This document shows, piece after piece, positions 24,701-63,900 of a stretch of 64,000 bases of DNA. The stretch comes from Sacculina carcini (Eukaryota; Arthropoda; Thecostraca; Sacculinidae), in NCBI GenBank assembly GCA_916048095.2, contig OU696592.1, forward strand, positions 7,203,427 to 7,267,426, read 5' to 3'. Under the pieces are notes generated by a model. It saw nothing but the letters and a program-made list of their open reading frames with translations, made no database searches and was not told the origin of the DNA. Position 1 is the first letter of the stretch, and every line of letters begins with the position of its first letter. The translations under genes were made by a program, and so were the position numbers.

Positions 24701-25413
24701 GGACAATGCTGCCGATTATGCCGCTCTCCGCCGCAAAACCAACATGATTGATTAGAACGACCCGGTGGTGTCCGGTCCATTCTCCTGACTGCTGCAACAA
24801 TCTGATCGGCTTCGTCCTGATGCTCAGTTTCTGTGATTTGGTCATTACGAGCCACTGGAATGACCGCGGCTGATAAAGGCATAGACTGCAGTTGGGTGCA
24901 ATTGAGTCTAGCCAACTCCAGTGACCTAGCAAGATCAATAGCAGTCTCCAAATCAAGATCAATCTTCTCTAGAAGACGCTGCCTGATATCATCAGAATGT
25001 AAGCCTCTAATGAAAGCGTCACGAATATACTCACTACGATATGTGACACCATCAACTGCTAAAAAACCACAGTCTTTTGACAACTCCTTCAATATTTGGA
25101 TGTACTGGTCAACGCTTTCATTTCCACTTTGTCTTCGGGCGGCCAACTGATGCCTTGAAAATACTACATTTTTCCGTTTCACGTACAACGACTGAAGCGA
25201 GGAAATCGCGGACGAATAACTAGAGCATTCGGCGATAAAACGATATACTTCTGGACTGACCAAATTCACAAGCAACGGTAGTTTTTGATTTTCATCGGCA
25301 TTTATAGCATCTATGAAATTATCAAACGTGTTCTTCCAGTGTAACCACTGTTGAGTTGAATCATTCGAGTTCGGTTCGACTGACAGGCGTTCAGGTCTCA
25401 AATACTTCTCCAT
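21757..25413 (-). CDS. Gypsy-1 Gag-Pol polyprotein (1218 aa)
   Basis: One frame from ATG at 25413 to the stop at 21757. Gag occupies about 1-215. Two CCHC knuckles lie at 224-257 (CWFCGGERHNRQHC and CRKCQKSGHFARVC). Protease: LLDTGSS at 305-311 and VILGHDFL at 375-382. Reverse transcriptase: motif A FSTVDLKNAYYQ (D515) and YLDD at 577-580. RNase H: ETDASDRALAATL from 718. Integrase: HHCC zinc domain (H848...C882-x2-C885) and catalytic D914, D972, E1008 with the canonical 35-residue spacing. The C-terminus RRSSRLRRPPARF resembles other Gypsy integrase tails. All catalytic residues are present. Gag and Pol are fused in one frame, so no frameshift is needed. Confidence 0.95.
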   Translation of the reverse strand: MEKYLRPERLSVEPNSNDSTQQWLHWKNTFDNFIDAINADENQKLPLLVNLVSPEVYRFIAECSSYSSAISSLQSLYVKRKNVVFSRHQLAARRQSGNESVDQYIQILKELSKDCGFLAVDGVTYRSEYIRDAFIRGLHSDDIRQRLLEKIDLDLETAIDLARSLELARLNCTQLQSMPLSAAVIPVARNDQITETEHQDEADQIVAAVRRMDRTPPGRSNQSCWFCGGERHNRQHCPAHNAVCRKCQKSGHFARVCRVTNSKVNAAAAATNTLAATTHVAAVPADLKKSTIYVLLDERHLLDALLDTGSSVSYISEAVVSRLNLRTRCCEERVSMASSSMVSQINRMCTANLHVRGKTYKYLKLLVMPQLCSDVILGHDFLSKHQSAEIKFGGDLPPLVCGLAAVKTKCAPPLFSNMDENTHSIATKSRRYTPDEKNFIKQETHRLLKEGVIEPSVSPWRAQVVVVESDQRKKRMVVDYSQTVNRFTRPDAYPLPNIEETVESIAQHRFFSTVDLKNAYYQVPIDENDKPFTAFQSGNQLFQFRRIPFGITNGVACFQRFIDDFIRDYDLHATYAYLDDITICGSNQKEHDVNFQRFMKAAQNVGLTFNHSKCQSAVTEVKILGYLVSDGIIRPDPSRLQPLREMPLPTTRKQLLRTIGLFSYYSKWVPCFADKIKPLIQSEFPLDESAVLAFEELKNSIANAALRAIEPDVPFVVETDASDRALAATLSQNDRPVAFFSRTLSKSETHWSSVEKEALAIVEAVKRWRHYLCGRRFSLITDQQAVAFMFNQTLSSRIKNFKIFRWRLELSNYNFDIVYRPGRENVSADALSRKYCLAVTKSDLVKIHNDLCHPGITRLNHFLKSKNVPCSIEDVKEVSRCCPTCAKYKPRFYLSANEYHVIKATQPFERLSLDFKGPVPSYNKNRFFLTIVDEYSRFPFIYPCADTSSRSVIACLTHLFSIFGLPGFIHSDRGSAFMSYELKEFLSSRGVATSRSTAFHPQGNGQCEKYNDTIWKALVLATQSKGLSVANWQDVMYDALHSIRSLLCVATNCTPHERMFSFNRRSSTGISIPSWLTDSKRAYLRNHNRHSKYDDSVEEVELLEANDKYAHVRFSSGRETTVSTRDLAPCPNDCSSEKGGPCERRLSEHSFVTENDNNIHRSQSNGSGIQTEADPEDPVIPPSHSNVDLAVDNSAPSQEIQLRRSSRLRRPPARFRDE

Positions 25414-25424
25414 TGTTCTTAAGT

Positions 25425-25440
25425 TATTTTGTCTTGTTAA
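25425..25440 (-). promoter_or_regulatory. Gypsy-1 primer-binding site complementary to own LTR
   Basis: In element sense, one base after the 5' LTR, the sequence is TTAACAAGACAAAATA. The LTR itself contains TATTTTGTCTTGTTAA (25502-25517 and 21493-21508), the exact 16-nt complement. This fits the self-priming mode known from Tf1 and sushi-type elements, rather than tRNA priming. Confidence 0.7.
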
Positions 25441-25441
25441 T

Positions 25442-25650
25442 TGAGACGTTTATATAATAAGAATCCAGAGTAATCGTACATGAGTAATCGTATAATAACG
25501 CTTAACAAGACAAAATACAGCCACGCGTGAAATGCTCCAGACAATAACAGACAGACACAATTCGCATCACACGCGTCATTCATACGCGCACACAAGAACG
25601 ATAAATATACCACAATGTATATTTATCGTTCGAACGATAAATATACCACA
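25442..25650 (-). repeat. Gypsy-1 5' LTR (209 bp)
   Basis: Identical to 21433-21641 over its full length. Confidence 0.95.
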
Positions 25651-36215: not shown

Positions 36216-37158
36216 TTGAAAAACTGAAGGATGACATCTGTTCGGCCTCACTGTGCGCCATCAAGGATGACTCTCCTTTCAGAATCGAGACTGACGCCTC
36301 TGGCTCGGCTCTGGCTGCAACCCTCTCTCAAGAAGGAAGACCAGTTGCCTTCTTTTCTAGGACATTAAATCGCTCGGAACGTTCTCAGTCAACGATCGAA
36401 CGTGAGGCAGCAGCGGTAATCGAATCCATCAGGAAATGGCAAGACCTGCTTACGGGACGAAAATTCACTATCGTCACCGACCAACAAGCCGTATCTTTCA
36501 TTTTCAACAGCAAATGCCTCTCCAAGGTGAAAAATGATAAATTGATGCGTTGGAGGCTTGAACTTTCCAGTTACTGTTATGATATAGAATACCGTCCTGG
36601 AGAATTTAACGCACCTGCTGATGCTCTATCGAGAGCATGTTCTCTCACGCTGACGTCATCCTTATCGGATATTCACGTTGCGCTCTGCCATCCCGGTGTC
36701 GCCCGGTTGAATCATTTCGTGAAGGAGAAGAACCTCCCATTCTCAACTGAAGACGTCAAGAAAGTCTGTCGCGATTGCAGAACGTGCGCTGAGCTGAAGC
36801 CTAGGTTTCACAAATCTCCTCCTGGTACACTCATCCATGCTGGCCGTCCGATGCAACGTTTGGCCATCGATTTCGTCGGACCCAAACCATCAACGAATGG
36901 TAATCGCTATCTCCTAGTTATCGTCGACGAGTATTCTAGATTCCCGTTTGCGTTCGCCTGTGCAGACATGATTTCTCAAACGGTGATTACGTGTTTGACT
37001 AGTCTCTTCACCTTGGTAGGATGTCCTGAAACAATTCACAGCGATAGAGGTGCACAATTCGTGTCTTCTGATCTCAAGCATTTCCTGTATCACAACGGTG
37101 TAACTATGTCGCACTCCTCGCCGTATCATCCTATAGGAAACGGCCAATGTGAGAGAAT
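36216..37158 (+). pseudogene. Gypsy-2 pol fragment (RNase H to integrase core)
   Basis: Near-identical to 46273-47214 of the full Gypsy-2 element, with a handful of substitutions. It encodes RNase H (ETDASGSALAATLSQ), the intact integrase zinc domain (HPGVARLNHF...C-x2-C) and core residues (AIDFVGP, IHSDRGAQF). It lacks LTRs, Gag, protease, RT and the integrase C-terminus, and lies between two LINE copies. It has one base that the full element lacks at the point where that element's frame breaks. Confidence 0.9.
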
Positions 37159-37627: not shown

Positions 37628-37827
37628 TGTGGCCGCCGTCTGTTATTTATATTTATTTAATAGTTAAATATCATGCAATTGTTATATTGTTTCTGTTTTA
37701 TTGTTAGACCTTGTGTGCGCCAAATGTGAAGGTGTAAAGACAACAACACATCGTGCTTCAGTAAATACACCAGTCGTTCGTTGCAGCTCGTGTGTGTTAA
37801 TTACTCGTTACTGTAGGCGTTCCTACA
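37628..37827 (+). repeat. 5' LTR of the CsRn1-like element
   Basis: About 200 bp, near-identical to 41934-42137 until the last 16 bp, where an indel lies before CGTTCCTACA. Confidence 0.9.
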
Positions 37828-37829
37828 AG

Positions 37830-37842
37830 TGGTGACCCCGAC
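37830..37842 (+). promoter_or_regulatory. tRNA-type primer-binding site
   Basis: TGGTGACCCCGAC, starting two bases after the 5' LTR. The TGG start complements a tRNA CCA end. The match to tRNA-Trp is from knowledge of the CsRn1 clade. Confidence 0.75.
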
Positions 37843-43608: not shown

Positions 43609-43864
43609 AAAACTTGAGTTTCGGATATTTAAACATGTAACATTGAATATGTAATAAATTTAGTATTTGTTATAAAACCTCATTTATCCGTGTTTGATGT
43701 GGTATTTGTTATTAGAATAGATTATAACTCCACTGAGGTAATGCGTGCGTCTATGAGTCTATGAGTTTAAAGGAAATGTGTGTGTGTGTATGAATTAATC
43801 ACAGCTGATTGCTCACGTAACCCTTTATCAGTCAGCTGACGAGAGGAATTTGTGTCTTTACAGT

Positions 43865-44203
43865 TGTTATGATCTGACATCCTTGCTATTGCTAGTGACT
43901 GGTTTCCCTCTGAGAAAAATGCGGCGATGTATTTTCCACTCGAAGTGTTTGTTATTTGCTAAGGGTTGTTTTCGGTATGTTTTCGTATAGTCTCGTTTAT
44001 AATATGTAACTAAATACGTTTTGTGCTCAATGAACATTGCTGTTACAAGTTGAGCATCCGCTCTCTTATATTTTGTAAATTTGATGCGTTAATTATTGTG
44101 TATGATGTATGATGCTTAAATGTATGATTTGATCGTTCACAGATATGTCGTGAATTTTGAGTTTAATAAAGCCTTTCGTTCAGGTTCGTTGAGTTTCATG
44201 ACA
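43865..44203 (+). repeat. Gypsy-2 5' LTR (339 bp)
   Basis: Same length as the 3' LTR, with about five single-base differences. Contains AATAAA near 44165 and the primer-complementary segment at 44154-44170. Confidence 0.95.
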
Positions 44204-44204
44204 A

Positions 44205-44221
44205 TTTATTAAACTCAAAAT
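44205..44221 (+). promoter_or_regulatory. Gypsy-2 primer-binding site complementary to own LTR
   Basis: TTTATTAAACTCAAAAT starts one base after the 5' LTR. Its exact 17-nt complement ATTTTGAGTTTAATAAA is in the LTR at 44154-44170. The 3' LTR copy carries one mismatch. Same arrangement as Gypsy-1, with unrelated sequence. Confidence 0.75.
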
Positions 44222-44240
44222 AATCAACGCTGGTTCCATC

Positions 44241-46853
44241 ATGGAAAATCTTTTGAAACCTTTGCGTTTCGAGGGCAATGACGAGACCACCGCGGAGCAG
44301 TGGACGCATTGGCATATAACGTTGAACAACTGTATCTCATCTCTCTCTGCGATGCCTCCAGACACTCCTCTGAACAAACTCAGCATTCTCTTCAATTATA
44401 TTTCACCGAATGTGTACTCTCTCATCTCCGATTGTGTAACATATGAGGAAGCAATCAGCGTGTTGAAATCGACTTACGTCAAACCCAAAAACACGGTGTT
44501 TGCAAGGCATCTGCTGGCCACCAAAAAGCAATCTACAGGAGAAAAAATTGATTCGTTTCTGCAATCTTTGAAAGGTCTTACAAAGGATTGTCAGTTCGGC
44601 GCCGTGAATGCACTTGAACATTCGAACCAGGCGATTCGTGACGCATTTATATCTGGCCTGGCGTCGGACGAGATCCGTCAGCGACTGCTAGAAAAATCTG
44701 ATCTGACATTGGAGTCGGCAGTGGCCACTGCACGCAGCCTAGAAATGGCTCAGATGAACGCCGCTGCTTATCGTCCTGCGTATGCAGCAGTTGCGGAGGT
44801 CACTCCTATAGAAGCGGCGTCTCCGGACTCAGATGCAGAATGTTCTGCTATGCGCAAAACGTCAACAACTTGCCAGTTCTGCGGGAAACCACCTCATCCG
44901 CGATGGAGGTGCCCTGCCAAAGATTCACTGTGCAGGAACTGCGGTAAAAAAGGGCATTTTGCCGTAGTGTGTAAATCATCTTCCTCGAGAAGTAACCCCG
45001 TGAGAACAAACGCTGCACTGAGTATCGCTGCTACGCGGCCGTTCGATTCTCCTAAATATCCCATGCTTTCTGTGGAAATTGATCGCAGACAATTCAAGGC
45101 TATGGTAGACAGTGGCAGCACGGATAACTTCATTCGACCAGAGATCGCAAAAAAGATGCATCTGAGAATTCTCAAATCAAGCGAGACCGTGTATATGGCG
45201 TCGTCTCAACTGATGAGCCGTACTGGAGGGTACTGTCTAGTGGACATATCGGTCGAAGGAAACGTGTATCGCAACGTTCGCCTGACAATTATGCCTGATC
45301 TGTGTGTACCGATGATACTCGGCCAAACTTTCATGAGACTCCATCGCACGGTCGAGTTCAAATTCGGAGGAAATAATCCGACTTTGCAAGTATGTGGAGT
45401 GGCACAAATGAATATCGATCCACCTGCCCTGTTCTCCAATCTTACTGAAGACTGCCGACCCATCTGCACAAGAAGCCGCTACTACTCTTCTTCTGATCGA
45501 GAATTCATCAAGAACGAAGTTCGAAAGCTGCTGAAGGATGGCATCATCAAAAAGTCGAACTCACCGTGGAGAGCCCAGATCGTGGTCACTCATAATGAAC
45601 GACACAAAAAGCGAATGGTGATTGACTATTCATCCACAATCAATAAATTCACCGAACTGGACGCCTTTCCACTTCCGAAAATTTCCAACATCATTCATAG
45701 TCTCACGCAATATAAGGTGTTTTCCAAAATGTATATGAAATCGGCGTACTACCAATGCCCTATTCGTGAAGGTGACAGGAAGTATACAGCATTCGAGGCT
45801 CTTGGAGAACTATTTGAGTTCACAAGACTTCCGTTTGGATTGACAAACTCTGTGGCGGTTTTTCAGCGCGTTTTGACCGACCTAATACGTAGAAACAACA
45901 TAAAGGGTGCTCATCTGTATATCGACGACATTGTGATCGGTGCTGATAATGAAAAAGAGTTGAATCAGCGTGTGGAGGCATTCACGAAGGTTGCCAAAGG
46001 AATGGGCCTCCAGCTCAACCAAGATAAGTGCGAATTCAACGTCCGATGTCTCAAATACCTGGGTCATCAAATCGAGAATGGAACCGTAAGACCAGACCCG
46101 GAAAGACTTGAACCTCTCAAGAGTCTGCCATTTCCTCAGTGTAAAAAGTCCCTGAAACGCTGTCTGGGGCTTTTCTCGTACTACTCTGTCTGGATTCCAA
46201 ATTTTTCATCGCAAATCAGCCCTCTTCTGAATACGTCATCATTTCCTTTGACGATTGAAGCCCGGTGGGCTTTTGAAAAACTGAAGGATGACATCTGTTC
46301 GGCCTCACTGTGCGCCATCAAGGATGACTCTCCTTTCAGAATCGAGACTGACGCCTCTGGCTCGGCTCTGGCTGCAACCCTCTCTCAAGAAGGAAGACCA
46401 GTTGCCTTCTTTTCTAGGACATTAAATCGCTCGGAACGTTCTCTGTCAACTATCGAACGTGAGGCAGCAGCGGTAATCGAATCCATCAGGAAATGGCAAC
46501 ACCTGCTTACGGGACGAAAATTCACTATCGTCACCGACCAACAAGCCGTATCTTTCATTTTCAACAGCAAATGCCTCTCCAAGGTGAAAAATGATAAATT
46601 GATGCGTTGGAGGCTTGAACTTTCCAGTTACTGTTATGATATAGAATACCGTCCTGGAGAATTTAACGCACCTGCTGATGCTCTATCGAGAGCATGTTCT
46701 CTCACGCTGACGTCATCCTTATCGGATATTCACGTTGCGCTCTGCCATCCCGGTGTCGCCCGGTTGAATCATTTCGTGAAGGAGAAGAACCTCCCATTCT
46801 CAACTGAAGACGTCAAGAACGTCTGTCGCGTTGCAGAACGTGCGCTGAGCTGA
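44241..46853 (+). pseudogene. Gypsy-2 Gag-Pol N-terminal part (870 aa), broken
   Basis: The frame starts MENLLKPLRF and is clearly related to Gypsy-1. Gag is followed by two CCHC knuckles (CQFCGKPPHPRWRC, CRNCGKKGHFAVVC), protease MVDSGSTDNF and MILGQTFM, RT with YIDD (LYIDDIVIG), RNase H ETDASGSALAATL, and the start of the integrase zinc domain. In RT motif A the residue at the catalytic Asp position is Tyr498 (FSKMYMKSAYYQ, where Gypsy-1 has FSTVDLKNAYYQ). A one-base deletion after 46830 shifts the frame, and translation stops at 46853. Confidence 0.9.
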
Positions 46854-46906
46854 AGCCTAGGCTTCACAAATCTCCTCCTGGTACACTCATCCATGCTGGC
46901 CGTCCG

Positions 46907-47794
46907 ATGCAACGTTTGGCCATCGATTTTGTCGGACACAAACCATCAACGAATGGTAATCGCTATCTCCTAGTTATCGTCGACGAGTATTCTAGATTCC
47001 CGTTTGCGTTCGCCTGTGCAGACATGACTTCTCAAACGGTGATTACGTGTTTGACTAGTCTCTTCACCTTGGTAGGATGTCCTGAAACAATTCACAGCGA
47101 TAGAGGTGCACAATTCGTGTCTCCTGATCTCAAGCATTTCCTGTATCACAACGGTGTAACTATGTCGCACTCCTCGCCGTATCATCCTATAGGAAACGGC
47201 CAATGTGAGAGAATGAACGGCTGCCTGTGGAGATCCATACGTCTGGCACTCAGGTCGCGACAGCTGAATGAAACACAATGGCAAGAAGTGCTGGATATTG
47301 CTCTGCACTCGGTGCGCTCGCTGCTATGTACTTCAACAAACACCACTCCGCATAATCGCTTCTTCAACTTTATGCGTCGATCTGGAACCGGATATTCTAT
47401 GCCCACCTGGTTGGCTGGAGGGCCTGCATTGCTCAGGAAGTTCGTCCGTACCAGCAAGTCTGACGCTGTTGTAGAGCCGGTGGAAATACTATCGTCTAGC
47501 CCGAAAGTCGCTAGAATCCGCCACTCTGACGGACGGGAATCTTCCGTGTCTACCGATGACCTCGCACCACTTCCGGCTTTCAGTGATAAGTCATATGATG
47601 AATCAAATGCCACTTCGGCCGAAAACGCCAACGTTGACATCTCTCCTCGGACACTCAATCCAGAGTCCGTGGCTGGCGCTGAAGACTCTTCGAGAACAAC
47701 TTGCGACCCAGATAGTGAAGGTGCCGTCAACCTCGGTACTTCTGAAGACTCACCCGCTGATGTCGCCGACACGGAGACCGCGTTGAAGTTCTGA
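46907..47794 (+). pseudogene. Gypsy-2 integrase core and C-terminus (downstream of frameshift)
   Basis: Resumes the pol frame with AIDFVGHKPS (first catalytic Asp), IHSDRGAQF (second) and NGQCERMNG (Glu). It then continues through a Ser/Thr-rich C-terminal extension to a stop at 47794. The apparent start Met is an internal residue, as the upstream frame is lost through the deletion at 46830. Confidence 0.85.
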
Positions 47795-47871
47795 CCGCCA
47801 AGATCTCGATCAGGACGACGTGTCGTCTTGAACAGGAAATACCAGCATTAATTTTTTTTACAAGGGGAGAG

Positions 47872-48210
47872 TGTTATGATCTGGCATCCTTGCTATTGCT
47901 AGTGACTGGTTTCCCTCTGAGAGAAATGCGGCGATGTATTTTCCACTCGAAGTGTTTGTTATTTGCTAAGGGTTGTTTTCGGTATGTTTTCGTATAGTCT
48001 CGTTTATAATATGTAACTAAATACGTTTTGTGCTCAATGAACATTGCTGTTACAAGTTGAGCATCCGCTCTCTTATATTTTGTAAATTTGATGCGTTAAT
48101 TGTTGTGTATGATGTATGATGCTTAAATGTATGATTTGATCGTTCACAGATATGTCGTGAATTTTGGGTTTAATAAAGCCTTTCGTTCAGGCTCGTTGAG
48201 TTTCATGACA
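47872..48210 (+). repeat. Gypsy-2 3' LTR (339 bp)
   Basis: Direct repeat of 43865-44203, followed by the ACAGT target duplication. Confidence 0.95.
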
Positions 48211-48215
48211 ACAGT

Positions 48216-48600: not shown

Positions 48601-48960
48601 GAGGAAGCTCCGTGAAGTAAAAAAAATAGAATACTCTGTTTACAGTCGTAACAGTAGAGCTTGGACTTCCTGTCCTTTTTGGGAGGACACAAGTAGCATC
48701 TCTTTCTCTTGTTCGTATTTTCTGTTGAAAGACATCAAGAGGATGTAATAGGTCTCTTAATTGGTGGGCTGTCATTAGGCAATACTCGTTTCCTTCAATG
48801 TTCGTATATGTGCAAATCTTCTGAATCTCGAAAACATAGTAAAAATACTGAAGCGATATCGTCCACATTGCGGTTAGCGTACCTACTTAGACCACTCCTT
48901 TCACGCACAATGTTATGAACACGAAGTCTCCCTGCCGAAACCGATTGCGGATCAGATGTC
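48601..48960 (-). pseudogene. Possible piggyBac-like transposase C-terminal relic
   Basis: Minus-strand frames around 48710-48610 read KRKRCYLCPPKKDRKSKLY then CYDCKQSI and, shifted, FTELP. This matches the C-x2-C...C-x2-C cysteine-rich end of piggyBac-family transposases. The preceding 250 bp are open but not recognisable and contain frame breaks. The catalytic domain is absent, so the call rests on the cysteine motif alone. Confidence 0.45.
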
Positions 48961-48970
48961 CAGTTTTCAA

Positions 48971-51900
48971 TAACACTTAGGTAACACTTAGGTAACACTT
49001 AGGGCACACTTAGGTAACACTTAGGGCACACTTAGGTAACACTTAGGTAACACTTAGGTAACACTTAGGGCACACTTATGTAACACTTAGGTAACACTTA
49101 GGTAACACTTAGGGCACACTTAGGTAACACTTAGGTAACACTTAGGTAACACTTAGGGCACACTTAGGTAACACTTAGGTAACACTTAGGTAACACTTAG
49201 GTAACACTTAGGTAACACTTAGGTAACACTTAGGTAACACTTAGGTAACACTTAGGGCACACTTAGGTAACAGTTAGGGCACACTTAGGTAACACTTAGG
49301 GCACACTTAGGTAACACTTAGGGCACACTTAGGTAACACTTAGGTAACACTTAGGTAACACTTAGGGCACACTTAGGTAACACTTAGGGCACACTTAGGT
49401 AACACTTAGGGCACACTTAGGTAACACTTAGGGCACACTTAGGTAACAGTTAGGGCACACTTAGGTAACACTTAGGTAACACTTAGGTAACACTTGGGTA
49501 ACACTTAGGTAACACTTAGGGTACACTTAGGGCACACTTAGGTAACACTTAGGGCACACTTAGGTAACACTTAGGTAACACTTAGGTAACACTTAGGTAA
49601 CACTTAGGTAACACTTAGGTAACACTTAGGTAACACTTAGGTAACACTTAGGGCACACTTAGGGCACACTTAGGTAACACTTAGGTAACACTTAGGGCAC
49701 ACTTAGGTAACACTTAGGTAACACTTAGGTAACACTTAGGTAACACTTAGGGCACACTTAGGTAACACTTAGGGCACACTTAGGTAACACTTAGGGCACA
49801 CCTAGGTAACACTTAGGGCACACTTAGGGCACACTTAGGGCACACTTAGGGCACACTTAGGTAACACTTAGGTAACACTTAGGGCACACTTAGGTAACAC
49901 TTAGGGCACACTTAGGTAACACTTAGGGCACAGTTAGGTAACACTTAGGGCACACTTAGGTAACACTTAGGTAACACTTAGGGCACACTTGGGGCACACT
50001 TAGGTAACACTTAGGTAACACTTAGGGCACACTTAGGTAACACTTAGGGCACACTTAGGTAACACTTAGGGCACACTTAGGTAACACTTAGGTAACACTT
50101 AGGTAACACTTAGGTAACACTTAGGTAACACTTAGGTAACACTTAGGGCACACTTAGGTAACACTTAGGTAACACTTAGGGCACAGTTAGGTAACACTTA
50201 GGGCACACTTAGGTAACACTTAGGTAACACTTATGTAACACTTAGGTAACACTTAGGTAACACTTAGGGTACACTTAGGTAACACTTAGGGCACACTTAG
50301 GTAACAGTTAGGGCACACTTAGGTAACACTCTGGGCACACTTAGGTAACACTTAGGGCACACTTAGGTAACACTTAGGGCACACTTAGGGCACACTTAGG
50401 TAACACTTAGGGCACACTTAGGTAACACTTAGGGCACACTTAGGTAACACTTAGGGCACACTTAGGTAAAACTTAGGACACACTTAGGTAACACTTAGGG
50501 CACACTTAGGGCACACTTAGGGCACACTTAGGTAACACTTAGGTAACACTTAGGGCACACTTAGGGCACACTTAGGTAACACTTAGGTAACACTTAGGTA
50601 ACACTTAGGACACACTTAGGTAACACTTAGGTAACACTTAGGTAACACTTAGGGCACAGTTAGGGCACACTTAGGTAACACTTAGGTAACACTTAGGTAA
50701 CACTTAGGTAACACTTAGGGCACACTTAGGTAACAGTTAGGGCACACTTAGGTAACAGTTAGGGCACACTTAGGTAACACTTAGGGCACAGTTAGGTAAC
50801 ACTTAGGGCACACTTAGGTAACACTTAGGTAACACTTAGGTAACAGTTAGGGCACACTTAGGTAACACTTAGGGCACACTTAGGTAAAACTTAGGACACA
50901 CTTAGGTAACACTTAGGGCACACTTAGGGCACACTTAGGGCACACTTAGGTAACACTTAGGTAACACTTAGGGCACACTTAGGGCACACTTAGGTAACAC
51001 TTAGGTAACACTTAGGGCACACTTAGGGCACACTTAGGTAACACTTAGGTAACACTTGGGTAACACTTAGGTAACACTTAGGTAACACTTAGGTAACACT
51101 TAGGGCACACTTAGGTAACAGTTAGGGCACACTTAGGTAACAGTTAGGGCACACTTAGGTAACACTTAGGGCACAGTTAGGTAACACTTAGGGCACACTT
51201 AGGTAACACTTAGGTAACACTTAGGGCACACTTAGGTAACACTTGGGGCACACTTAGGTAACACTTAGGGCACACTTAGGTAACACTTAGGGCACACTTA
51301 GGTAACACTTAGGGCACACTTAGGTAACACTTAGGGCACACTTAGGTAACAGTTAGGGCACACTTAGGTAACACTTAGGTAACACTTAGGTAACACTTGG
51401 GTAACACTTAGGTAACACTTAGGGTACACTTAGGGCACACTTAGGTAACACTTAGGGCACACTTAGGTAACACTTAGGTAACACTTAGGTAACAGTTAGG
51501 GCACACTTAGGTAACACTTAGGGCACACTTAGGTAAAACTTAGGACACACTTAGGTAACACTTAGGGCACACTTAGGGCACACTTAGGGCACACTTAGGT
51601 AATACTTAGGTAACACTTAGGGCACACTTAGGGCACACTTAGGTAACACTTAGGTAACACTTAGGTAACACTTAGGACATACTTAGGTAACACTTAGGTA
51701 ACACTTAGGTAACACTTAGGGCACACTTAAGGCACACTTAGGTAACACTTAGGTAAAACTTAGGTAACACTTAGGGCACACTTAGGTAACAGTTAGGGCA
51801 CACTTAGGAAACAGTTCGGGCACACTTAGGTAACACTTAGGGCACACTTAGGTAACACTTAGGTAACACTTAGGGCGCACTTAGGTAACACTTAAGAAAC

Positions 51901-54900
51901 ACTTAGGTAACACTTAGGTAACACTTAGGTAACACTTAGGTAACACTTAGGGCACACTTAGGTAACAGTTAGGGCACACTTAGGGCACACTTAGGTAACA
52001 CTTAGGTAACACTTAGGGCACACTTAGGTAACACTTAGGGCACACTTAGGTATCACTTAGGTAACACTTAGGTAACACTTAGGTAACACTTAGGGTACAC
52101 TTAGGTAACAGTTAGGGCACACTTAGGTAACACTTGGGTAACACTTAGGTAACACTTGGGTAACACTTAGGTTACACTTAGGTAACACTTAGGGCACATT
52201 TAGGTAACACTTAGGGCACACTTAGGTAACAGTTAGGGCACACTTAGGTAACACTCTGGGCACACTTAGGTAACACTTAGGGCACACTTAGGTAACACTT
52301 AGGGCACACTTAGGGCACACTTAGGTAACACTTAGGGCACACTTAGGTAACACTTAGGGCACACCTAGGTAACACTTAGGGCACACTTAGGGCACACTTA
52401 GGGCACACTTAGGTAACACTTAGGTAACACTTAGGGCACACTTAGGTAACACTTAGGGCACACTTAGGTAACACTTAGGGCACAGTTAGGTAACACTTAG
52501 GGCACACTTAGGTAACACTTAGGTAACACTTAGGTAACACTTAGGTAACACTTAGGTAACACTTAGGTAACACTTAGGGCACACTTAGGGCACACTTAGG
52601 TAATACTTAGGTAACACTTAGGGCACACTTAGGTAACACTTAGGTAACACTTAGGTAACACTTAGGTAACACTTAGGGCACACTTAGGTAACACTTAGGG
52701 CACACTTAGGTAACACTTAGGGCACACCTAGGTAACACTTAGGGCACACTTAGGGCACACTTAGGGCACACTTAGGGCACACTTAGGTAACACTTAGGTA
52801 ACACTTAGGGCACACTTAGGTAACACTTAGGGCACACTTAGGTAACACTTAGGGCACAGTTAGGTAACACTTAGGGCACACTTAGGTAACACTTAGGTAA
52901 CACTTAGGGCACACTTGGGGCACACTTAGGTAACACTTAGGTAACACTTAGGGCACACTTAGGTAACACTTAGGGCACACTTAGGTAACACTTAGGGCAC
53001 ACTTAGGTAACACTTAGGTAACACTTAGGTAACACTTAGGTAACACTTAGGTAACACTTAGGTAACACTTAGGGCACACTTAGGTAAAACTTAGGACACA
53101 CTTAGGTAACACTTAGGGCACACTTAGGGCACACTTAGGGCACACTTAGGTAACACTTAGGTAACACTTAGGGCACACTTAGGGCACACTTAGGTAACAC
53201 TTAGGTAACACTTAGGTAACACTTAGGGCACAGTTAGGGCACACTTAGGTAACACTTAGGTAACACTTAGGTAACACTTAGGTAACACTTAGGGCACACT
53301 TAGGTAACACTTAGGGCACACTTAGGTAACACTTAGGGCACACTTAGGTAACACTTAGGTAACACTTAGGTAACGCTTAGGGCACACTTAGGTAACACTT
53401 AGGTCACACTTAGGTAACACTTAGGTAACACTTAGGTAACACTTAGGGCACACTTAGGTAACACTTAGGTAACACTTAGGTAACACTTAGGGCACAGTTA
53501 GGGCACACTTAGGTAACACTTAGGTAACACTTAGGTAACACTTAGGTAACACTTAGGGCACACTTAGGTAACACTTAGGGCACACTTAGGTAACACTTAG
53601 GGCACACTTAGGTAACACTTAGGTAACACTTAGGTAACGCTTAGGGCACACTTAGGTAACACTTAGGTCACACTTAGGTAACACTTAGGTAACACTTAGG
53701 TAACACTTAGGGCACACTTAGGTAACACTTAGGGCACACTTAGGTAACAGTTAGGGCACACTTAGGGAACACTTAGGGCACACTTAGGTAACACTTAGGT
53801 AACACTTAGGTAACACTTAGGTAACACTTGGGTAACACTTGGGTAACACTTGGGTAACACTTAGGGCACACTTAGGTAACACTTAGGGCACACTTAGGTA
53901 ACACTTAGGGCACACTTAGGTAACACTTAGGTAACACTTAGGTAACACTTAGGTAACACTTAGGTAACACTTAGGTAACACTTAGGGCACACTTAGGGCA
54001 CACTTAGGTAACACTTAGGTAACACTTAGGGCACACTTAGGTAACACTTAGGGCACACTTAGGTAACACTTAGGTAAACTTAGGTAACACTTAGGTAACA
54101 CTTAGGTAACACTTAGGACACACTTAGGTAACACTTAGGTAACACTTAGGTAACACTTAGGGCACAGTTAGGGCACACTTAGGTAACACTTAGGTAACAC
54201 TTAGGTAACACTTAGGTAACACTTAGGGCACACTTAGGTAACACTTAGGGCACACTTAGGTAACACTTAGGGCACACTTAGGTAACACTTAGGTAACACT
54301 TAGGTAACGCTTAGGGCACACTTAGGTAACACTTAGGTCACACTTAGGTAACACTTAGGTAACACTTAGGTAACACTTAGGGCACACTTAGGGCACACTT
54401 AGGTAACACTTAGGGCACACTTAGGTAACACTTAGGGCACACTTAGGTAACACTTATGTAACACTTAGGTAACACTTAGGTAACACTTAGGGCACACTTA
54501 GGTAACACTTAGGGCACACTTAGGTAACAGTTAGGGCACACTTAGGGAACACTTAGGGCACACTTAGGTAACACTTAGGTAACACTTAGGTAACACTTAG
54601 GTAACACTTGGGTAACACTTGGGTAACACTTAGGGCACACTTAGGTAACACTTAGGGCACACTTAGGTAACACTTAGGGCACACTTAGGTAACACTTAGG
54701 TAACACTTAGGTAACACTTAGGTAACACTTAGGTAACACTTAGGTAACACTTAGGTAACACTTAGGTAACACTTAGGGTACACTTAGGTAACACTTAGGG
54801 CACACTTAGGTAACACTTAGGTAAACTTAGGTAACACTTAGGTAACACTTAGGTAACACTTAGGACACACTTAGGTAACACTTAGGTAACACTTAGGTAA

Positions 54901-57900
54901 CACTTAGGGCACAGTTAGGGCACACTTAGGTAACACTTAGGTAACACTTAGGTAACACTTAGGTAACACTTAGGGCACACTTAGGTAACACTTAGGGCAC
55001 ACTTAGGTAACACTTAGGGCACACTTAGGTAACACTTAGGTAACACTTAGGTAACGCTTAGGGCACACTTAGGTAACACTTAGGTCACACTTAGGTAACA
55101 CTTAGGTAACACTTAGGTAACACTTAGGGCACACTTAGGGCACACTTAGGTAACACTTAGGGCACACTTAGGTAACACTTAGGGCACACTTAGGTAACAC
55201 TTATGTAACACTTAGGTAACACTTAGGTAACACTTAGGGCACACTTAGGTAACACTTAGGGCACACTTAGGTAACAGTTAGGGCACACTTAGGGAACACT
55301 TAGGGCACACTTAGGTAACACTTAGGTAACACTTAGGTAACACTTAGGTAACACTTGGGTAACACTTGGGTAACACTTAGGGCACACTTAGGTAACACTT
55401 AGGGCACACTTAGGTAACACTTAGGGCACACTTAGGTAACACTTAGGTAACACTTAGGTAACACTTAGGTAACACTTAGGTAACACTTAGGTAACACTTA
55501 GGTAACACTTAGGTAACACTTAGGGTACACTTAGGTAACACTTAGGGCACACTTAGGTAACACTTAGGACACACTTAGGTAACACTTAGGGCACACTTAG
55601 GGCACACTTAGGGCACACTTAGGTAACACTTAGGTAACACTTAGGTAACACTGAGGACACACTTAGGTAACACTTAGGGCACACTTAGGGCACACTTAGG
55701 GCACACTTAGGTAACACTTAGGTAACACTTAGGGCACACTTAGGTAACACTTAGGGCACACTTAGGTAACACTTAGGGCACACTTAGGTAACACTTAGGG
55801 CACACTTAGGGCACACTTAGGTAACACTTAGGGCACACTTAGGTAACACTTAGGGCACACCTAGGTAACACTTAGGGCACACTTAGGGCACACTTAGGGC
55901 ACACTTAGGTAACACTTAGGTAACACTTAGGGCACACTTAGGTAACACTTAGGGCACACTTAGGTAACACTTAGGGCACAGTTAGGTAACACTTAGGGCA
56001 CACTTAGGTAACACTTAGGTAACACTGAGGTAACACTTAGGTAACACTTAGGTAACACTTAGGTAACACTTAGGGCACACTTAGGGCACACTTAGGTAAC
56101 ACTTAGGGCACACTTAGGGCACACTTAGGTAACACTTAGGGCACACTTAGGTAACACTTAGGGCACACTTAGGTAACACTTATGTAACACTTAAGTAACA
56201 CTTAGGTAACACTTAGGGCACACTTAGGTAACACTTAGGGCACACTTAGGTAACAGTTAGGGCACACTTAGGTAACACTTAGGGCACACTTAGGTAACAC
56301 TTAGGGCACACTTAGGTAACAGTTAGGGCACACTTAGGTAACACTTAGGGCACACTTAGGTAACACTTAGGTAACACTTGGGTAACACTTAGGTAACACT
56401 TAGGGCACACTTGGGGCACACTTAGGTAACACTTAGGTAACACTTAGGGCACACTTAGGTAACACTTAGGGCACACTTAGGTAACACTTAGGGCACACTT
56501 AGGTAACACTTAGGTAACACTTAGGTAACACTTAGGTAACACTTAGGTAACACTTAGGTAACACTTAGGGCACACTTAGGTAACACTTAGGTAACACTTA
56601 GGGCACAGTTAGGTAACACTTAGGGCACACTTAGGTAACACTTAGGTAACACTTAGGGCACACTTAGGTAACAGTTAGGGCACACTTAGGTAACACTTGG
56701 GTAACACTTAGGTAACACTTAGGTAACACTTAGGGCACACTTAGGTAACACTTAGGGCACACCTAGGTAACACTTAGGGCACACTTAGGGCACACTTAGG
56801 GCACACTTAGGTAACACTTAGGTAACACTTAGGGCACACTTAGGTAACACTTAGGGCACACTTAGGTAACACTTAGGGCACACTTAGGTAACACTTAGGG
56901 CACACTTAGGTAACACTTAGGTAACACTGAGGTAACACTTAGGTAACACTTAGGTAACACTTAGGTAACACTTAGGGCACACTTAGGGCACACTTAGGTA
57001 ACACTTAGGGCACACTTAGGGCACACTTAGGTAACACTTAGGGCACACTTAGGTAACACTTAGGGCACACTTAGGTAACACTTATGTAACACTTAAGTAA
57101 CACTTAGGTAACACTTAGGGCACACTTAGGTAACACTTAGGGCACACTTAGGTAACAGTTAGGGCACACTTAGGTAACACTTAGGGCACACTTAGGTAAC
57201 ACTTAGGGCACACTTAGGTAACAGTTAGGGCACACTTAGGTAACACTTAGGGCACACTTAGGTAACACTTAGGTAACACTTGGGTAACACTTAGGTAACA
57301 CTTAGGGCACACTTGGGGCACACTTAGGTAACACTTAGGTAACACTTAGGGCACACTTAGGTAACACTTAGGGCACACTTAGGTAACACTTAGGGCACAC
57401 TTAGGTAACACTTAGGTAACACTTAGGTAACACTTAGGTAACACTTAGGTAACACTTAGGTAACACTTAGGGCACACTTAGGTAACACTTAGGTAACACT
57501 TAGGGCACAGTTAGGTAACACTTAGGGCACACTTAGGTAACACTTAGGTAACACTTAGGGCACACTTAGGTAACAGTTAGGGCACACTTAGGTAACACTT
57601 GGGTAACACTTAGGTAACACTTGGGTAACACTTAGGTTACACTTAGGTAACACTTAGGGCACACTTAGGTAACACTTAGGGCACACTTAGGTAACAGTTA
57701 GGGCACACTTAGGTAACACTTAGGGCAAACTTAGGTAACACTTAGGGCACACTTAGGTAACACTTAGGGCACACTTAGGGCACACTTAGGTAACACTTAG
57801 GGCACACTTAGGTAACACTTAGGGCACACCTAGGTAACACTTAGGGCACACTTAGGGCACACTTAGGGCACACTTAGGTAACACTTAGGTAACACTTAGG

Positions 57901-60900
57901 GCACACTTAGGTAACACTTAGGGCACACTTAGGTAACACTTAGGGCACAGTTAGGTAACACTTAGGGCACACTTAGGTAACACTTAGGTAACACTTAGGT
58001 AACACTTAGGTAACACTTAGGTAACACTTAGATAACACCTAGGGCACACTTAGGGCACACTTAGGTAACACTTAGGTAACACTTAGGGCACACTTAGGTA
58101 ACACTTAGGGCACACTTAGGTAACACTTAGGTAACACTTAGGTAACACTTAGGTAACACTTAGGGCACACTTAGGTAACACTTAGGGCACACTTAGGTAA
58201 CACTTAGGGCACACTTAGGTAACACTTAGGTAACACTTAGGTAACGCTTAGGGCACACTTAGGTAACACTTAGGTCACACTTAGGTAACACTTAGGTAAC
58301 ACTTAGGTAACACTTAGGGCACACTTAGGGCACACTTAGGTAACACTTAGGGCACACTTAGGTAACACTTAGGGCACACTTAGGTAACACTTATGTAACA
58401 CTTAGGTAACACTTAGGTAACACTTAGGTAACACTTAGGTAACACTTAGGTAACACTTAGGTAACACTTAGGTAACACTTAGGTAACACTTAGGTAACAC
58501 TTAGGGTACACTTAGGTAACACTTAGGGCACACTTAGGTAACACTTAGGGCACACTTAGGTAACACTTAGGGCACACTTAGGTAACACTTAGGGAACACT
58601 TAGGTAACAGTTAGGGCACACTTAGGTAACACTTAGGTAACACTTAGGTAACAGTTAGGGCACACTTAGGTAACACTTAGGGCACACTTAGGTAAAACTT
58701 AGGACACACTGAGGTAACACTTAGGGCACACTTAGGTAACAGTTAGGGCACACTTAGGTAACACTTAGGGCACACTTAGGTAACACTTAGGGCACACTTA
58801 GGTAACACTTAGGGCACACTTAGGTAACAGTTAGGGCACACTTAGGTAACACTTGGGTAACACTTAGGTAACACTTGGGTAACACTTAGGTTACACTTAG
58901 GTAACACTTAGGGCACACTTAGGGCACACTTAGGTAACACTTAGGTAACACTTAGGGCACACTTAGGTAACACTTAGGGCACACTTAGGTAACACTTAGG
59001 GCACAGTTAGGTAACACTTAGGGCACACTTAGGTAACACTTAGGTAACACTTAGGTAACACTTAGGTAACACTTAGGGCACACTTGGGGCACACTTAGGT
59101 AACACTTAGGTAACACTTAGGGCACACTTAGGTAACACTTAGGGCACACTTAGGTAACACTTAGGGCACACTTAGGTAACACTTAGGTAACACTTAGGTA
59201 ACACTTAGGTAACACTTAGGTAACACTTAGGTAACACTTAGGGCACACTTAGGTAACACTTAGGTAACACTTAGGGCACAGTTAGGTAACACTTAGGGCA
59301 CACTTAGGTAACACTTAGGTAACACTTATGTAACACTTAGGTAACACTTAGGTAACACTTAGGGTACACTTAGGTAACACTTAGGGCACACTTAGGTAAC
59401 AGTTAGGGCACACTTAGGTAACACTCTGGGCACACTTAGGTAACACTTAGGGCACACTTAGGTAACACTTAGGTAACACTTAGGTAACACTTAGGTAACA
59501 CTTAGGTAACACTTAGGTAACACTTAGGGCACACTTAGGTAACACTTAGGTAACACTTAGGGCACAGTTAGGTAACACTTAGGGCACACTTAGGTAACAC
59601 TTAGGTAACACTTATGTAACACTTAGGTAACACTTAGGTAACACTTAGGGTACACTTAGGTAACACTTAGGGCACACTTAGGTAACAGTTAGGGCACACT
59701 TAGGTAACACTCTGGGCACACTTAGGTAACACTTAGGGCACACTTAGGTAACACTTATGTAACACTTAGGTAACACTTAGGTAACACTTAGGGTACACTT
59801 AGGTAACACTTAGGGCACACTTAGGTAACAGTTAGGGCACACTTAGGTAACACTCTGGGCACACTTAGGTAACACTTAGGGCACACTTAGGTAACACTTA
59901 GGTAACACTTAGGTAACACTTAGGTAACACTTAGGTAACACTTAGGTAACACTTAGGGCACACTTAGGTAACACTTAGGTAACACTTAGGGCACAGTTAG
60001 GTAACACTTAGGGCACACTTAGGTAACACTTAGGTAACACTTATGTAACACTTAGGTAACACTTAGGTAACACTTAGGGTACACTTAGGTAACACTTAGG
60101 GCACACTTAGGTAACAGTTAGGGCACACTTAGGTAACACTCTGGGCACACTTAGGTAACACTTAGGGCACACTTAGGTAACACTTAGGGCACACTTAGGG
60201 CACACTTAGGTAACACTTAGGGCACACTTAGGTAACACTTAGGGCACACTTAGGTAACACTTAGGGCACACTTAGGTAAAACTTAGGACACACTTAGGTA
60301 ACACTTAGGGCACACTTAGGTAACACTTAGGGCACACTTAGGTAACACTTAGGTAAACTTAGGTAACACTTAGGTAACACTTAGGGCACACTTAGGTAAC
60401 ACTTAGGGCACACTTAGGTAACACTTGGGTAACACTTAGGTAACACTTGGGTAACACTTAGGTTACACTTAGGTAACACTTAGGGCACACTTAGGTAACA
60501 CTTAGGGCACACTTAGGTAACAGTTAGGGCACACTTAGGTAACACTTAGGGCACACTTAGGTAACACTTAGGGCACACTTAGGTAACACTTAGGGCACAC
60601 TTAGGGCACACTTAGGTAACACTTAGGGCACACTTAGGTAACACTTAGGGCACACCTAGGTAACACTTAGGGCACACTTAGGGCACACTTAGGGCACACT
60701 TAGGTAACACTTAGGTAACACTTAGGGCACACTTAGGTAACACTTAGGGCACACTTAGGTAACACTTAGGGCACACTTAGGTAACACTTAGGGCACACTT
60801 AGGTAACACTTAGGTAACACTGAGGTAACACTTAGGTAACACTTAGGTAACACTTAGGTAACACTTAGGGCACACTTAGGGCACACTTAGGTAACACTTA

Positions 60901-63900
60901 GGGCACACTTAGGGCACACTTAGGTAACACTTAGGGCACACTTAGGTAACACTTAGGGCACACTTAGGTAACACTTATGTAACACTTAAGTAACACTTAG
61001 GTAACACTTAGGGCACACTTAGGTAACACTTAGGGCACACTTAGGTAACAGTTAGGGCACACTTAGGTAACACTTAGGGCACACTTAGGTAACACTTAGG
61101 GCACACTTAGGTAACAGTTAGGGCACACTTAGGTAACACTTAGGGCACACTTAGGTAACACTTAGGTAACACTTGGGTAACACTTAGGTAACACTTAGGG
61201 CACACTTGGGGCACACTTAGGTAACACTTAGGTAACACTTAGGGCACACTTAGGTAACACTTAGGGCACACTTAGGTAACACTTAGGGCACACTTAGGTA
61301 ACACTTAGGTAACACTTAGGTAACACTTAGGTAACACTTAGGTAACACTTAGGGCACACTTAGGTAACACTTAGGTAACACTTAGGGCACAGTTAGGTAA
61401 CACTTAGGGCACACTTAGGTAACACTTAGGTAACACTTAGGGCACACTTAGGTAACAGTTAGGGCACACTTAGGTAACACTTGGGTAACACTTAGGTAAC
61501 ACTTGGGTAACACTTAGGTTACACTTAGGTAACACTTAGGGCACACTTAGGTAACACTTAGGGCACACTTAGGTAACAGTTAGGGCACACTTAGGTAACA
61601 CTTAGGGCACACTTAGGTAACACTTAGGGCACACTTAGGTAACACTTAGGGCACACTTAGGGCACACTTAGGTAACACTTAGGGCACACTTAGGTAACAC
61701 TTAGGGCACACCTAGGTAACACTTAGGGCACACTTAGGGCACACTTAGGGCACACTTAGGTAACACTTAGGTAACACTTAGGGCACACTTAGGTAACACT
61801 TAGGGCACACTTAGGTAACACTTAGGGCACAGTTAGGTAACACTTAGGGCACACTTAGGTAACACTTAGGTAACACTTAGGTAACACTTAGGTAACACTT
61901 AGGTAACACTTAGATAACACCTAGGGCACACTTAGGGCACACTTAGGTAACACTTAGGTAACACTTAGGGCACACTTAGGTAACACTTAGGGCACACTTA
62001 GGTAACACTTAGGTAACACTTAGGTAACACTTAGGTAACACTTAGGGCACACTTAGGTAACACTTAGGGCACACTTAGGTAACACTTAGGGCACACTTAG
62101 GTAACACTTAGGTAACACTTAGGTAATGCTTAGGGCACACTTAGGTAACACTTAGGTCACACTTAGGTAACACTTAGGTAACACTTAGGTAACACTTAGG
62201 GCACACTTAGGGCACACTTAGGTAACACTTAGGGCACACTTAGGTAACACTTAGGGCACACTTAGGTAACACTTATGTAACACTTAGGTAACACTTAGGT
62301 AACACTTAGGTAACACTTAGGTAACACTTAGGTAACACTTAGGTAACACTTAGGTAACACTTAGGTAACACTTAGGTAACACTTAGGGTACACTTAGGTA
62401 ACACTTAGGGCACACTTAGGTAACACTTAGGGCACACTTAGGTAACACTTAGGGCACACTTAGGTAACACTTAGGGAACACTTAGGTAACAGTTAGGGCA
62501 CACTTAGGTAACACTTAGGTAACACTTAGGTAACAGTTAGGGCACACTTAGGTAACACTTAGGGCACACTTAGGTAAAACTTAGGACACACTGAGGTAAC
62601 ACTTAGGGCACACTTAGGTAACAGTTAGGGCACACTTAGGTAACACTTAGGGCACACTTAGGTAACACTTAGGGCACACTTAGGTAACACTTAGGGCACA
62701 CTTAGGTAACAGTTAGGGCACACTTAGGTAACACTTGGGTAACACTTAGGTTACACTTAGGTAACACTTAGGGCACACTTAGGGCACACTTAGGGCACAC
62801 TTAGGGCACACTTAGGGCACACTTAGGTAACACTTAGGGCACACTTAGGTAACACTTAGGGCACAGTTAGGTAACACTTAGGGCACACTTAGGTAACACT
62901 TAGGTAACACTTAGGTAACACTTAGGTAACACTTAGGGCACACTTGGGGCACACTTAGGTAACACTTAGGTAACACTTAGGGCACACTTAGGTAACACTT
63001 AGGGCACACTTAGGTAACACTTAGGGCACACTTAGGTAACACTTAGGTAACACTTAGGTAACACTTAGGTAACACTTAGGTAACACTTAGGTAACACTTA
63101 GGGCACACTTAGGTAACACTTAGGTAACACTTAGGGCACAGTTAGGTAACACTTAGGGCACACTTAGGTAACACTTAGGTAACACTTATGTAACACTTAG
63201 GTAACACTTAGGTAACACTTAGGGTACACTTAGGTAACACTTAGGGCACACTTAGGTAACAGTTAGGGCACACTTAGGTAACACTCTGGGCACACTTAGG
63301 TAACACTTAGGGCACACTTAGGTAACACTTAGGTAACACTTAGGTAACACTTAGGTAACACTTAGGTAACACTTAGGTAACACTTAGGGCACACTTAGGT
63401 AACACTTAGGTAACACTTAGGGCACAGTTAGGTAACACTTAGGGCACACTTAGGTAACACTTAGGTAACACTTATGTAACACTTAGGTAACACTTAGGTA
63501 ACACTTAGGGTACACTTAGGTAACACTTAGGGCACACTTAGGTAACAGTTAGGGCACACTTAGGTAACACTCTGGGCACACTTAGGTAACACTTAGGGCA
63601 CACTTAGGTAACACTTAGGGCACACTTAGGGCACACTTAGGTAACACTTAGGGCACACTTAGGTAACACTTAGGGCACACTTAGGTAACACTTAGGGCAC
63701 ACTTAGGGCACACTTAGGGCACACTTAGGTAACACTTAGGTAACACTTAGGGTACACTTAGGTAACACTTAGGGCACACTTAGGTAACAGTTAGGGCACA
63801 CTTAGGTAACACTTAGGTAACACTTAGGGCACACTTAGGTAACAGTTAGGGCACACTTAGGTAACACTTGGGTAACACTTAGGTAACACTTGGGTAACAC

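What the first reader, a model, noticed from the sequence alone, without database searches (positions are those of the whole stretch)
44154..44221. Gypsy-2 independently shows a 17-nt LTR/PBS complementarity
TTTATTAAACTCAAAAT after the 5' LTR is the exact complement of ATTTTGAGTTTAATAAA in the LTR. The two families have unrelated LTR and PBS sequences, yet the same arrangement, so complementarity is maintained while sequence changes. Such covariation is strong evidence for function. The CsRn1-like element in the same window instead has a tRNA-type site, which acts as an internal contrast.
Basis: partly seen in the sequence, partly recalled or inferred. Interest (0 to 1): 0.8.

Follow-up and report, generated by a model that had tools for sequence, protein, structure and literature searches.

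The report
Animal retrotransposons that prime themselves
A group of jumping genes in this animal genome appears to start copying its RNA into DNA by folding back a piece of its own RNA instead of borrowing a cellular tRNA, and the two pairing pieces have changed together in many related families.

Summary
TTTATTAAACTCAAAAT (44205-44221), 1 nt after the 5' LTR of a Ty3/gypsy element, is the exact complement of LTR bases 44154-44170, beyond chance. Gypsy-1 has a 16-nt version. In this genome 61 of 80 sampled related insertions keep both segments; 56 of 61 have an unbroken 12-18 bp helix, 5 have a broken one. Fifteen different pairs were found; swapping partners destroys the match (0 of 200,000 permutations). 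Ten of 17 helix pairs change on both sides (0 of 500 shuffles). No family of 15 has TGG in the first 12 nt of its PBS. The one CsRn1-like element examined has a TGG site matching tRNA-Trp-like 3' ends.

Best explanation: Tf1-type self-priming by an LTR-encoded RNA segment. The two window elements lack a chromodomain and look Mag-like, a lineage with tRNA sites in Culex (PMC3286476). In 12 of 15 families the primer ends in the poly(A) signal. The mechanism is known; I found no report of it in such animal elements. Priming itself is inferred. 'Independent' and 'unrelated' are overstated: the families are homologous.

The parts
43860..43864 (+). 5-bp target site duplication ACAGT, left copy (right copy 48211-48215)
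43865..44203 (+). Gypsy-2 5' LTR, TG...CA, 339 bp
44154..44170 (+). putative self-primer arm ATTTTGAGTTTAATAAA; its 3' end is the poly(A) signal AATAAA
   Evidence: covariation
44171..44185 (+). small predicted hairpin directly 3' of the primer (GCCT/AGGT), at the supposed cleavage junction
   Evidence: centroid, not the minimum-energy fold, for this element; similar hairpins in several other families
44205..44221 (+). self-complementary primer binding site TTTATTAAACTCAAAAT, 1 nt after the LTR
44241..46853 (+). gag-protease-RT-RNase H reading frame; two CCHC knuckles by eye
46808..47794 (+). integrase reading frame (rve), in another frame in this copy; no chromodomain match
47862..47871 (+). 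polypurine tract AAGGGGAGAG next to the 3' LTR
47872..48210 (+). Gypsy-2 3' LTR, 5 differences from the 5' LTR, one of them in the arm copy (48161-48177)
25442..25650 (-). Gypsy-1 5' LTR (3' LTR 21433-21641, identical)
25502..25517 (-). Gypsy-1 self-primer arm TATTTTGTCTTGTTAA
25425..25440 (-). Gypsy-1 PBS TTAACAAGACAAAATA
37628..37827 (+). contrast: CsRn1-like 5' LTR (target duplication TGCT, by eye)
37830..37842 (+). contrast: tRNA-type PBS TGGTGACCCCGAC, complement of tRNA-Trp-like 3' ends

Best explanation
Gypsy-2, Gypsy-1 and their relatives prime minus-strand DNA synthesis with a piece of their own RNA. The LTR segment of 12-18 nt, which I place at or near the 5' end of the transcript, folds back onto the PBS that begins 1 nt after the 5' LTR. 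It makes a hairpin of 31-80 nt loop, with a small second hairpin abutting it in several families. A cut after the arm (after AAUAAA in most families), probably by the element's own RNase H, frees a 3' end that is extended through the rest of the LTR. In most families poly(A) addition would follow the same AAUAAA, so the short piece between the cut and the poly(A) site would be the repeat used for the first strand transfer. Because the retained primer would be copied into the plus strand, the PBS would be rewritten from the LTR arm in each cycle, which would keep the two matched. Shown: the complementarity, its position, its covariation, the predicted fold, the lack of TGG in the PBS, and an encoded RNase H domain. 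Inferred: the transcript 5' end, the cut, the use as primer and the rewriting.
For: The PBS starts 1 nt after a TG...CA LTR in both window elements, and the layout ...CAA|PBS recurs. Of 61 sampled copies that keep both segments, 56 have an unbroken helix of 12-18 bp; in the other 5 (L047, L095, L096, L099, L115) one or two non-Watson-Crick positions break it, and 3 of those 5 have stop codons in the RT piece. Of 5 further places taken from an RT search without sight of the PBS, 4 have unbroken helices of 13-16 bp and 1 (L125) has none, its arm being damaged by eye. Over 15 families, own partners pair at 229 of 240 positions, swapped partners at a mean of 9.67 of 16, and 0 of 200,000 permutations reach the observed total. 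For 10 of the 15 families 10 of 17 pairs change on both sides, covariation score 0.535 against 0.124 shuffled (0 of 500) and 0.05-0.16 slid. Changed cells number 29 on both sides against 2 on one side, as I would expect if the PBS is copied from the primer. In the E family the loop is 37, 57 or 80 nt while the arms stay the same. RNA folding z-scores are -2.20 to -5.25 for 11 leaders, -0.38 for the CsRn1-like control. The pattern AATAAARCC...ACAATTTATT occurs 108 times in the genome, 0 times read backwards. RNase H domains are present. The layout meets the published rule for self-primers, at least 10 bp starting 0-5 bp after the LTR (PMC6317226, passage). No PBS has TGG in its first 12 nt, 0 of 15.
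Against: No RNA data: neither transcript start nor cut nor cDNA end is known. Upstream of the arm I saw, by eye, no consistent TATA box, and some families have TTTCAG or the like about 15-20 nt further 5', so the arm could lie inside the transcript instead of at its end. Families E and G1 lack AATAAA in the arm, and so does the single copy of C. The 3' LTR of the window copy has a mismatch in its arm. Gypsy-2 has a TGG 27 nt after its LTR (44231), outside the PBS, which I did not test against tRNAs; internal tRNA or other small-RNA primers were not excluded either, for want of a full RNA set. 19 of 80 sampled places could not be judged, and 70 of the 150 scored places were not sampled. The helix used was taken from these same sequences, which favours it over the slid versions.
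Confidence: 0.85

Rival explanations
1. The hairpin mainly hides the AAUAAA of the 5' LTR so that transcripts are not ended early; the 3' LTR lacks the PBS and stays open. Priming is by something else.
For: 12 of 15 families have AATAAA (in D and J AATAAAA) at the arm's end, inside the helix; hiding would act only at the 5' LTR.
Against: Families E, G1 and C keep the helix without AATAAA in it. In the others the pairing runs 7-12 bp beyond AATAAA, and it covaries there (over all 15 families the distal ten positions are paired at 139 of 150). It leaves no primer, since no PBS has TGG in its first 12 nt. It may well be a side benefit.
Confidence: 0.06
2. A tRNA (or part of one, or another small RNA) primes at this PBS, and the LTR match is a regulatory fold.
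For: Mag-lineage elements of Culex have PBSs for tRNA-Leu or tRNA-Ser (PMC3286476, passages). A full tRNA set of this genome was not obtained.
Against: 0 of 15 families have TGG in the first 12 nt of the PBS. The PBS follows its own LTR in each family, which a shared host RNA would not explain. The same genome shows what a tRNA-type site looks like in the CsRn1-like element.
Confidence: 0.04
3. The inverted repeat is an ordinary LTR palindrome, dimer or packaging signal, unrelated to priming.
For: Stem-loops in 5' leaders are common in retroelements (recalled).
Against: It does not explain why one arm sits at the priming position just after the LTR in family after family, nor the lack of another recognisable PBS.
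Confidence: 0.03
4. Chance or shared descent without function.
For: The arms are AT-rich and TTTATT recurs; families C, J and M pair no better in the distal ten positions than the best swapped partners (8, 7 and 7 against a maximum of 8).
Against: Markov resampling never exceeds 15 nt in 20,000; partner swaps and slid controls fail over the set.
Confidence: 0.01

Closest known systems
Tf1, Tf2 and Tj1 of fission yeasts (Tf1/sushi group of chromoviruses)
   Same: PBS just after the 5' LTR is complementary to an LTR-encoded segment at the mRNA 5' end; no tRNA PBS; RNase H encoded. For Tf1, 11 bases and a cut between bases 11 and 12 (PMC7175516, passages); for Tj1, a figure legend and text (PMC4600332, passages).
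   Different: No chromodomain match in the two window elements; longer pairing (12-18 nt); arm ends in AATAAA in 12 of 15 families; animal host; many families with covarying pairs. The primer is not shown biochemically.
TAR lineage (Houba, Osr-1) Ty1/copia and Tcn1-clade chromoviruses of plants, self-priming predicted
   Same: Same computational criterion: at least 10 bp starting 0-5 bp after the LTR (PMC6317226, passages).
   Different: Other superfamily or a chromovirus clade; plants. For one Tcn1-like element of Selaginella another paper found neither a tRNA site nor self-priming (PMC2864245, passage).
Mag lineage of Ty3/gypsy (metazoa)
   Same: One long gag-pol frame, two CCHC knuckles, clear AATAAA in the LTR (PMC3601003 says the last of Mag A, passages). 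Mag elements are known from crustaceans (PMC3587641, passages).
   Different: Mag-like elements of Culex have PBSs for tRNA-Leu or tRNA-Ser, one for tRNA-Arg (PMC3286476, passages). None of the 15 families here has TGG in the first 12 nt of its PBS.
CsRn1 clade (in this window as the contrast)
   Same: Neighbouring Ty3/gypsy element in the same genome.
   Different: tRNA-type PBS TGGTGACCCCGAC, 4-bp target duplication, no LTR/PBS helix. A crustacean CsRn1-like element has a tRNA-Trp PBS (PMC3587641, passage).

Membership tests
self-priming LTR retrotransposons (mechanism class) | at least 10 bp complementary to the 5' LTR, starting 0-5 bp after it | tested here: met
   17 and 16 bp starting 1 nt after the LTR in the window; in 61 sampled copies that keep both segments, 56 unbroken helices of 12-18 bp and 5 broken ones. 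Outside the window the LTR end was read from layout, and from the two LTRs only where the 20 full stretches allowed it
self-priming LTR retrotransposons (mechanism class) | no TGG-type tRNA site after the LTR | tested here: met
   0 of 15 families with TGG in the first 12 nt of the PBS; further downstream not tested
self-priming LTR retrotransposons (mechanism class) | primer segment is the 5' end of the mRNA | not testable with these tools
   no transcript data; pairing stops 12-18 nt from the supposed cut, which fits
self-priming LTR retrotransposons (mechanism class) | element RNase H cuts the primer free | not testable with these tools
   RNase H domains PF17917 and PF17919 found; activity unknown
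Tf1/sushi chromoviruses | chromodomain at the integrase C-terminus | tested here: not met
   hmmscan of the whole Gypsy-1 frame and of the Gypsy-2 integrase frame finds no chromodomain at E 0.001; other families not scanned, and a genome search for it did not complete
Tf1/sushi chromoviruses | RT groups with chromoviruses in a tree | not tested
   no reference set of clades was at hand
Mag lineage | gag-pol type: single frame, two CX2CX4HX4C knuckles, RT then integrase | tested here: met
   (frames, knuckles by eye); the single frame is that of Gypsy-1, the window copy of Gypsy-2 is split; that this marks Mag is recalled
Mag lineage | RT groups with Mag/SURL in a tree | not tested
   no reference sequences; the protein hits listed carry no clade names
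Mag lineage | PBS for tRNA-Leu or tRNA-Ser | tested here: not met
   PBS sequences begin TTTATT, TTTTATT, TTATT or TTAAC, no TGG in the first 12 nt

The most novel reading that the evidence does not exclude
Self-priming arose, or was taken up, in a non-chromoviral, Mag-like branch of animal Ty3/gypsy elements and spread through a radiation of at least 15 families in one genome. In most of them one hexamer does two jobs: AAUAAA is both the poly(A) signal and the 3' end of the primer, and the hairpin also hides it at the 5' LTR. The PBS is rewritten from the LTR in each replication cycle, so primer and PBS evolve together without G-U intermediates.
Probability: 0.5. Interest if true: 0.72.

Novelty: new variant of a known kind. 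Interest (0 to 1): 0.62.

Why it matters
Priming by tRNA is often treated as the rule for LTR elements, with self-priming described, in what I saw, for Tf1/sushi chromoviruses and a few plant lineages. Many natural families in one animal genome, each with its own matched primer and PBS, would show that self-priming evolves in other lineages. They are a natural covariation experiment, and they make it testable how an element drops its need for host tRNA and how primer and PBS stay matched. It also warns that annotation tools that seek tRNA sites will mislabel such elements as lacking a PBS.

Tried and rejected
Relatives in viral contigs: none confirmed. tRNAs: none in the window; the Rfam tRNA search of the genome did not complete five times. 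A T-arm pattern gave 0 places because I spaced it wrongly, then 15. Three of those 15 places were read; ARAGORN calls no tRNA in them, and they are tRNA-Trp-like 3' pieces with CCA joined to other DNA, so the CsRn1 primer is named by its 3' end only. Family C was misregistered (13 families, 193 of 234 paired, 0 of 200,000); one search corrects it and adds L and M. In one search, which groups 67 copies, L051 is a rearranged copy and L115 was put with G2 though it belongs with I; neither enters a count given here except L115 among the 61. A chromodomain search of the genome and a copy-count pattern did not complete. The idea that poly(A)-signal hiding is the main function was set low because three families lack AATAAA in the arm. 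A spliced leader or a TCAG initiator upstream of the arm was considered and left open.

Full report
WHAT IS THERE. The window lies in a 264-Mb genome of 43 contigs without a name. A PIG-A-like frame in the window has its best named match in a barnacle, 57% identity, so the host is probably an arthropod, perhaps a crustacean; this is weak. Three LTR elements matter. Gypsy-2 (43865-48210, plus strand) has LTRs of 339 bp with 5 differences, target duplication ACAGT, polypurine tract AAGGGGAGAG. Gypsy-1 (21433-25650, minus strand) has identical LTRs, target duplication GACAT and a stop-to-stop frame of 1230 aa. The stated 17-nt complement is exact and correctly placed. Markov resampling of LTR and downstream sequence gave at most 15 nt in 20,000 trials.

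GENOME-WIDE TEST. A 200-aa RT piece of Gypsy-2 matched 150 scored places, a floor since only the best of 5350 candidates were scored. I took 80 of the 150, chosen by hand to cover the score groups and drop near-identical copies: 20 as 6.3-kb stretches, 60 as 601-base pieces placed where the PBS should be. In 61 of 80 both the LTR arm and the PBS could be read. Of these 61, 56 have an unbroken Watson-Crick helix of 12-18 bp; in two of the 56 (L060, L110) a mismatch or G-U pair stands at its end. In the other 5 (L047, L095, L096, L099, L115) one or two mismatches or G-U pairs break the helix. The remaining 19 could not be judged: no recognisable 5' end, the arm lost or partly lost, an inverted duplication, a piece that ended or began too early, or masked letters. 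I did not look for a tRNA site in those 19. A Gypsy-1 RT search gave 13 further places that I listed, preferring long frames and without sight of the PBS; 5 of the 13 could be fetched. Four have unbroken helices of 13-16 bp, two of them in families not seen before; the fifth (L125) has none, its arm being damaged by eye while the PBS is still there. The pattern AATAAARCC-N(18-40)-ACAATTTATT, which fixes only six of the pairs, occurs 108 times in the genome and 0 times read backwards. Among the 47 places printed, about ten loop sequences belong to families that I could not read further, one resembling family M and one L125.

COVARIATION. Fifteen distinct pairs (families G2, B1, B2, C, D, J, E, G1, F, G, H, I, K, L, M; my own labels, one copy each) were compared over 16 positions. 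Own partners pair at 229 of 240 positions. Swapped partners pair at a mean of 9.67 of 16 (maximum 14), and 0 of 200,000 permutations reach the observed total. In the ten positions beyond the AATAAA part, own partners pair at 7-10 (mean 9.27) and swapped ones at a mean of 5.20, maximum 8; families C, J and M, at 8, 7 and 7, are within the swapped range. On an alignment of ten of the fifteen (C, E, G1, L and M were left out for loop length, poor copy or late arrival), 10 of 17 pairs change on both sides, the covariation score is 0.535 against a shuffled mean of 0.124 (0 of 500), and sliding the partner by 1-3 columns drops it to 0.05-0.16. Gypsy-1 and family E, 76% identical in RT, differ at four arm positions and all four are compensated. 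Only 2 of 170 cells changed on one side, against 29 on both. In helices kept by selection alone I would expect more G-U intermediates; their near absence suggests that the PBS is rewritten by copying the primer (inference). A Tf1 paper whose title says that the self primer is not removed appears in a reference list; I have not read it. Within families the first 14 PBS positions are nearly constant (exceptions L047, L060, L096) and most differences lie from position 15 on, where the primer would end. In family E the loop is 37, 57 or 80 nt with the same arms.

FOLD. Eleven leaders fold with the predicted helix, z -2.20 to -5.25; the CsRn1-like control is at -0.38. In several families a small hairpin of the type GCCT...AGG abuts the primer's 3' end. 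Two stacked helices at the cut recall, from memory, the extra leader structure needed by Tf1; titles of such papers are in the reference list seen.

CONTRAST AND tRNA. The CsRn1-like element has TGGTGACCCCGAC 2 nt after its LTR. The matching tRNA 3' end, in a T-arm pattern, occurs at 15 places with 0 in the control. Three of the 15, read in full, are tRNA-Trp-like 3' pieces with CCA joined to other DNA, not intact tRNA genes. None of the 15 self-complementary families has TGG in the first 12 nt of its PBS; Gypsy-2 has one 27 nt after the LTR that I did not test. I could not obtain the full tRNA set.

MECHANISM. Tf1-type self-priming explains the position, the matched change, the missing tRNA site and the encoded RNase H in one step. 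The primer would be the LTR arm, of which 12 of 15 end in AATAAA (AATAAAA in D and J). For strand transfer, the poly(A) site must lie 3' of the cut so that the 3' end of the RNA repeats part of what was copied first; a poly(A) signal at the end of the primer gives this. Families E and G1 have AATATA or ATTATA just after the arm instead, perhaps their signals (inference). That the arm is the transcript's 5' end is inferred.

KNOWN AND NEW. Self-priming is established for Tf1 and proposed for Tj1, other fungal and vertebrate Tf1/sushi elements, Tcn1-clade elements and plant TAR copia (passages of PMC7175516, PMC4600332, PMC6317226, PMC6934838). The two window elements have no chromodomain match and look Mag-like by frame and knuckles; a tree with reference clades was not made. 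The Mag lineage of Culex has tRNA-Leu, tRNA-Ser and one tRNA-Arg PBS (PMC3286476, passages), and a single-frame steamer-like mussel element a putative tRNA-Asn PBS (PMC11046912, passages). In the listings of nine full-text searches of the open library and the passages read, I saw no report of self-priming in Mag-like or other non-chromoviral animal gypsy elements; most subscription papers are not held there, so this is not proof of novelty.

'Independently' and 'unrelated' do not hold: both families share ancestry and layout. The rest stands.

Noticed in passing
L120, L126, L127 (80-83 bases) and 12 more places: Fifteen identical tRNA-Trp-like 3' ends (GTTCAAATCACGTCGGGGTCA). The three read are followed by a genomic CCA and joined upstream to different DNA, as if 3' pieces of tRNA-Trp had been reverse transcribed and inserted.
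   Followed up: partly
48808-64000: An 11-bp satellite array begins about 600 bp after the Gypsy-2 element and, by its copy number, appears to fill most or all of the rest of the window.
   Followed up: no
36216-37158 and 46273-47214: A 943-bp piece of a Gypsy-2-type pol (RNase H/integrase), 99% identical to the one in Gypsy-2, lies between pieces of a non-LTR reverse transcriptase-like frame on the other strand: nested or chimeric insertions.
   Followed up: no
43865-44203 against 47872-48210: Four of the five differences between the Gypsy-2 LTRs are A in the 5' LTR and G in the 3' LTR, one of them inside the primer arm copy.
   Followed up: no
L071, L072, L098: Family E elements differ in the loop between arm and PBS (80, 57 or 37 nt), apparently by a repeated unit, while primer and PBS are unchanged.
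   Followed up: partly
9735-10382: Tandem 33-bp repeat that keeps long reading frames on both strands.
   Followed up: no
upstream of the arms: Several families have TTTCAG or TTTTCAG about 15-20 nt before the arm, which resembles a splice acceptor or a TCAG initiator; it bears on where the transcript starts.
   Followed up: no
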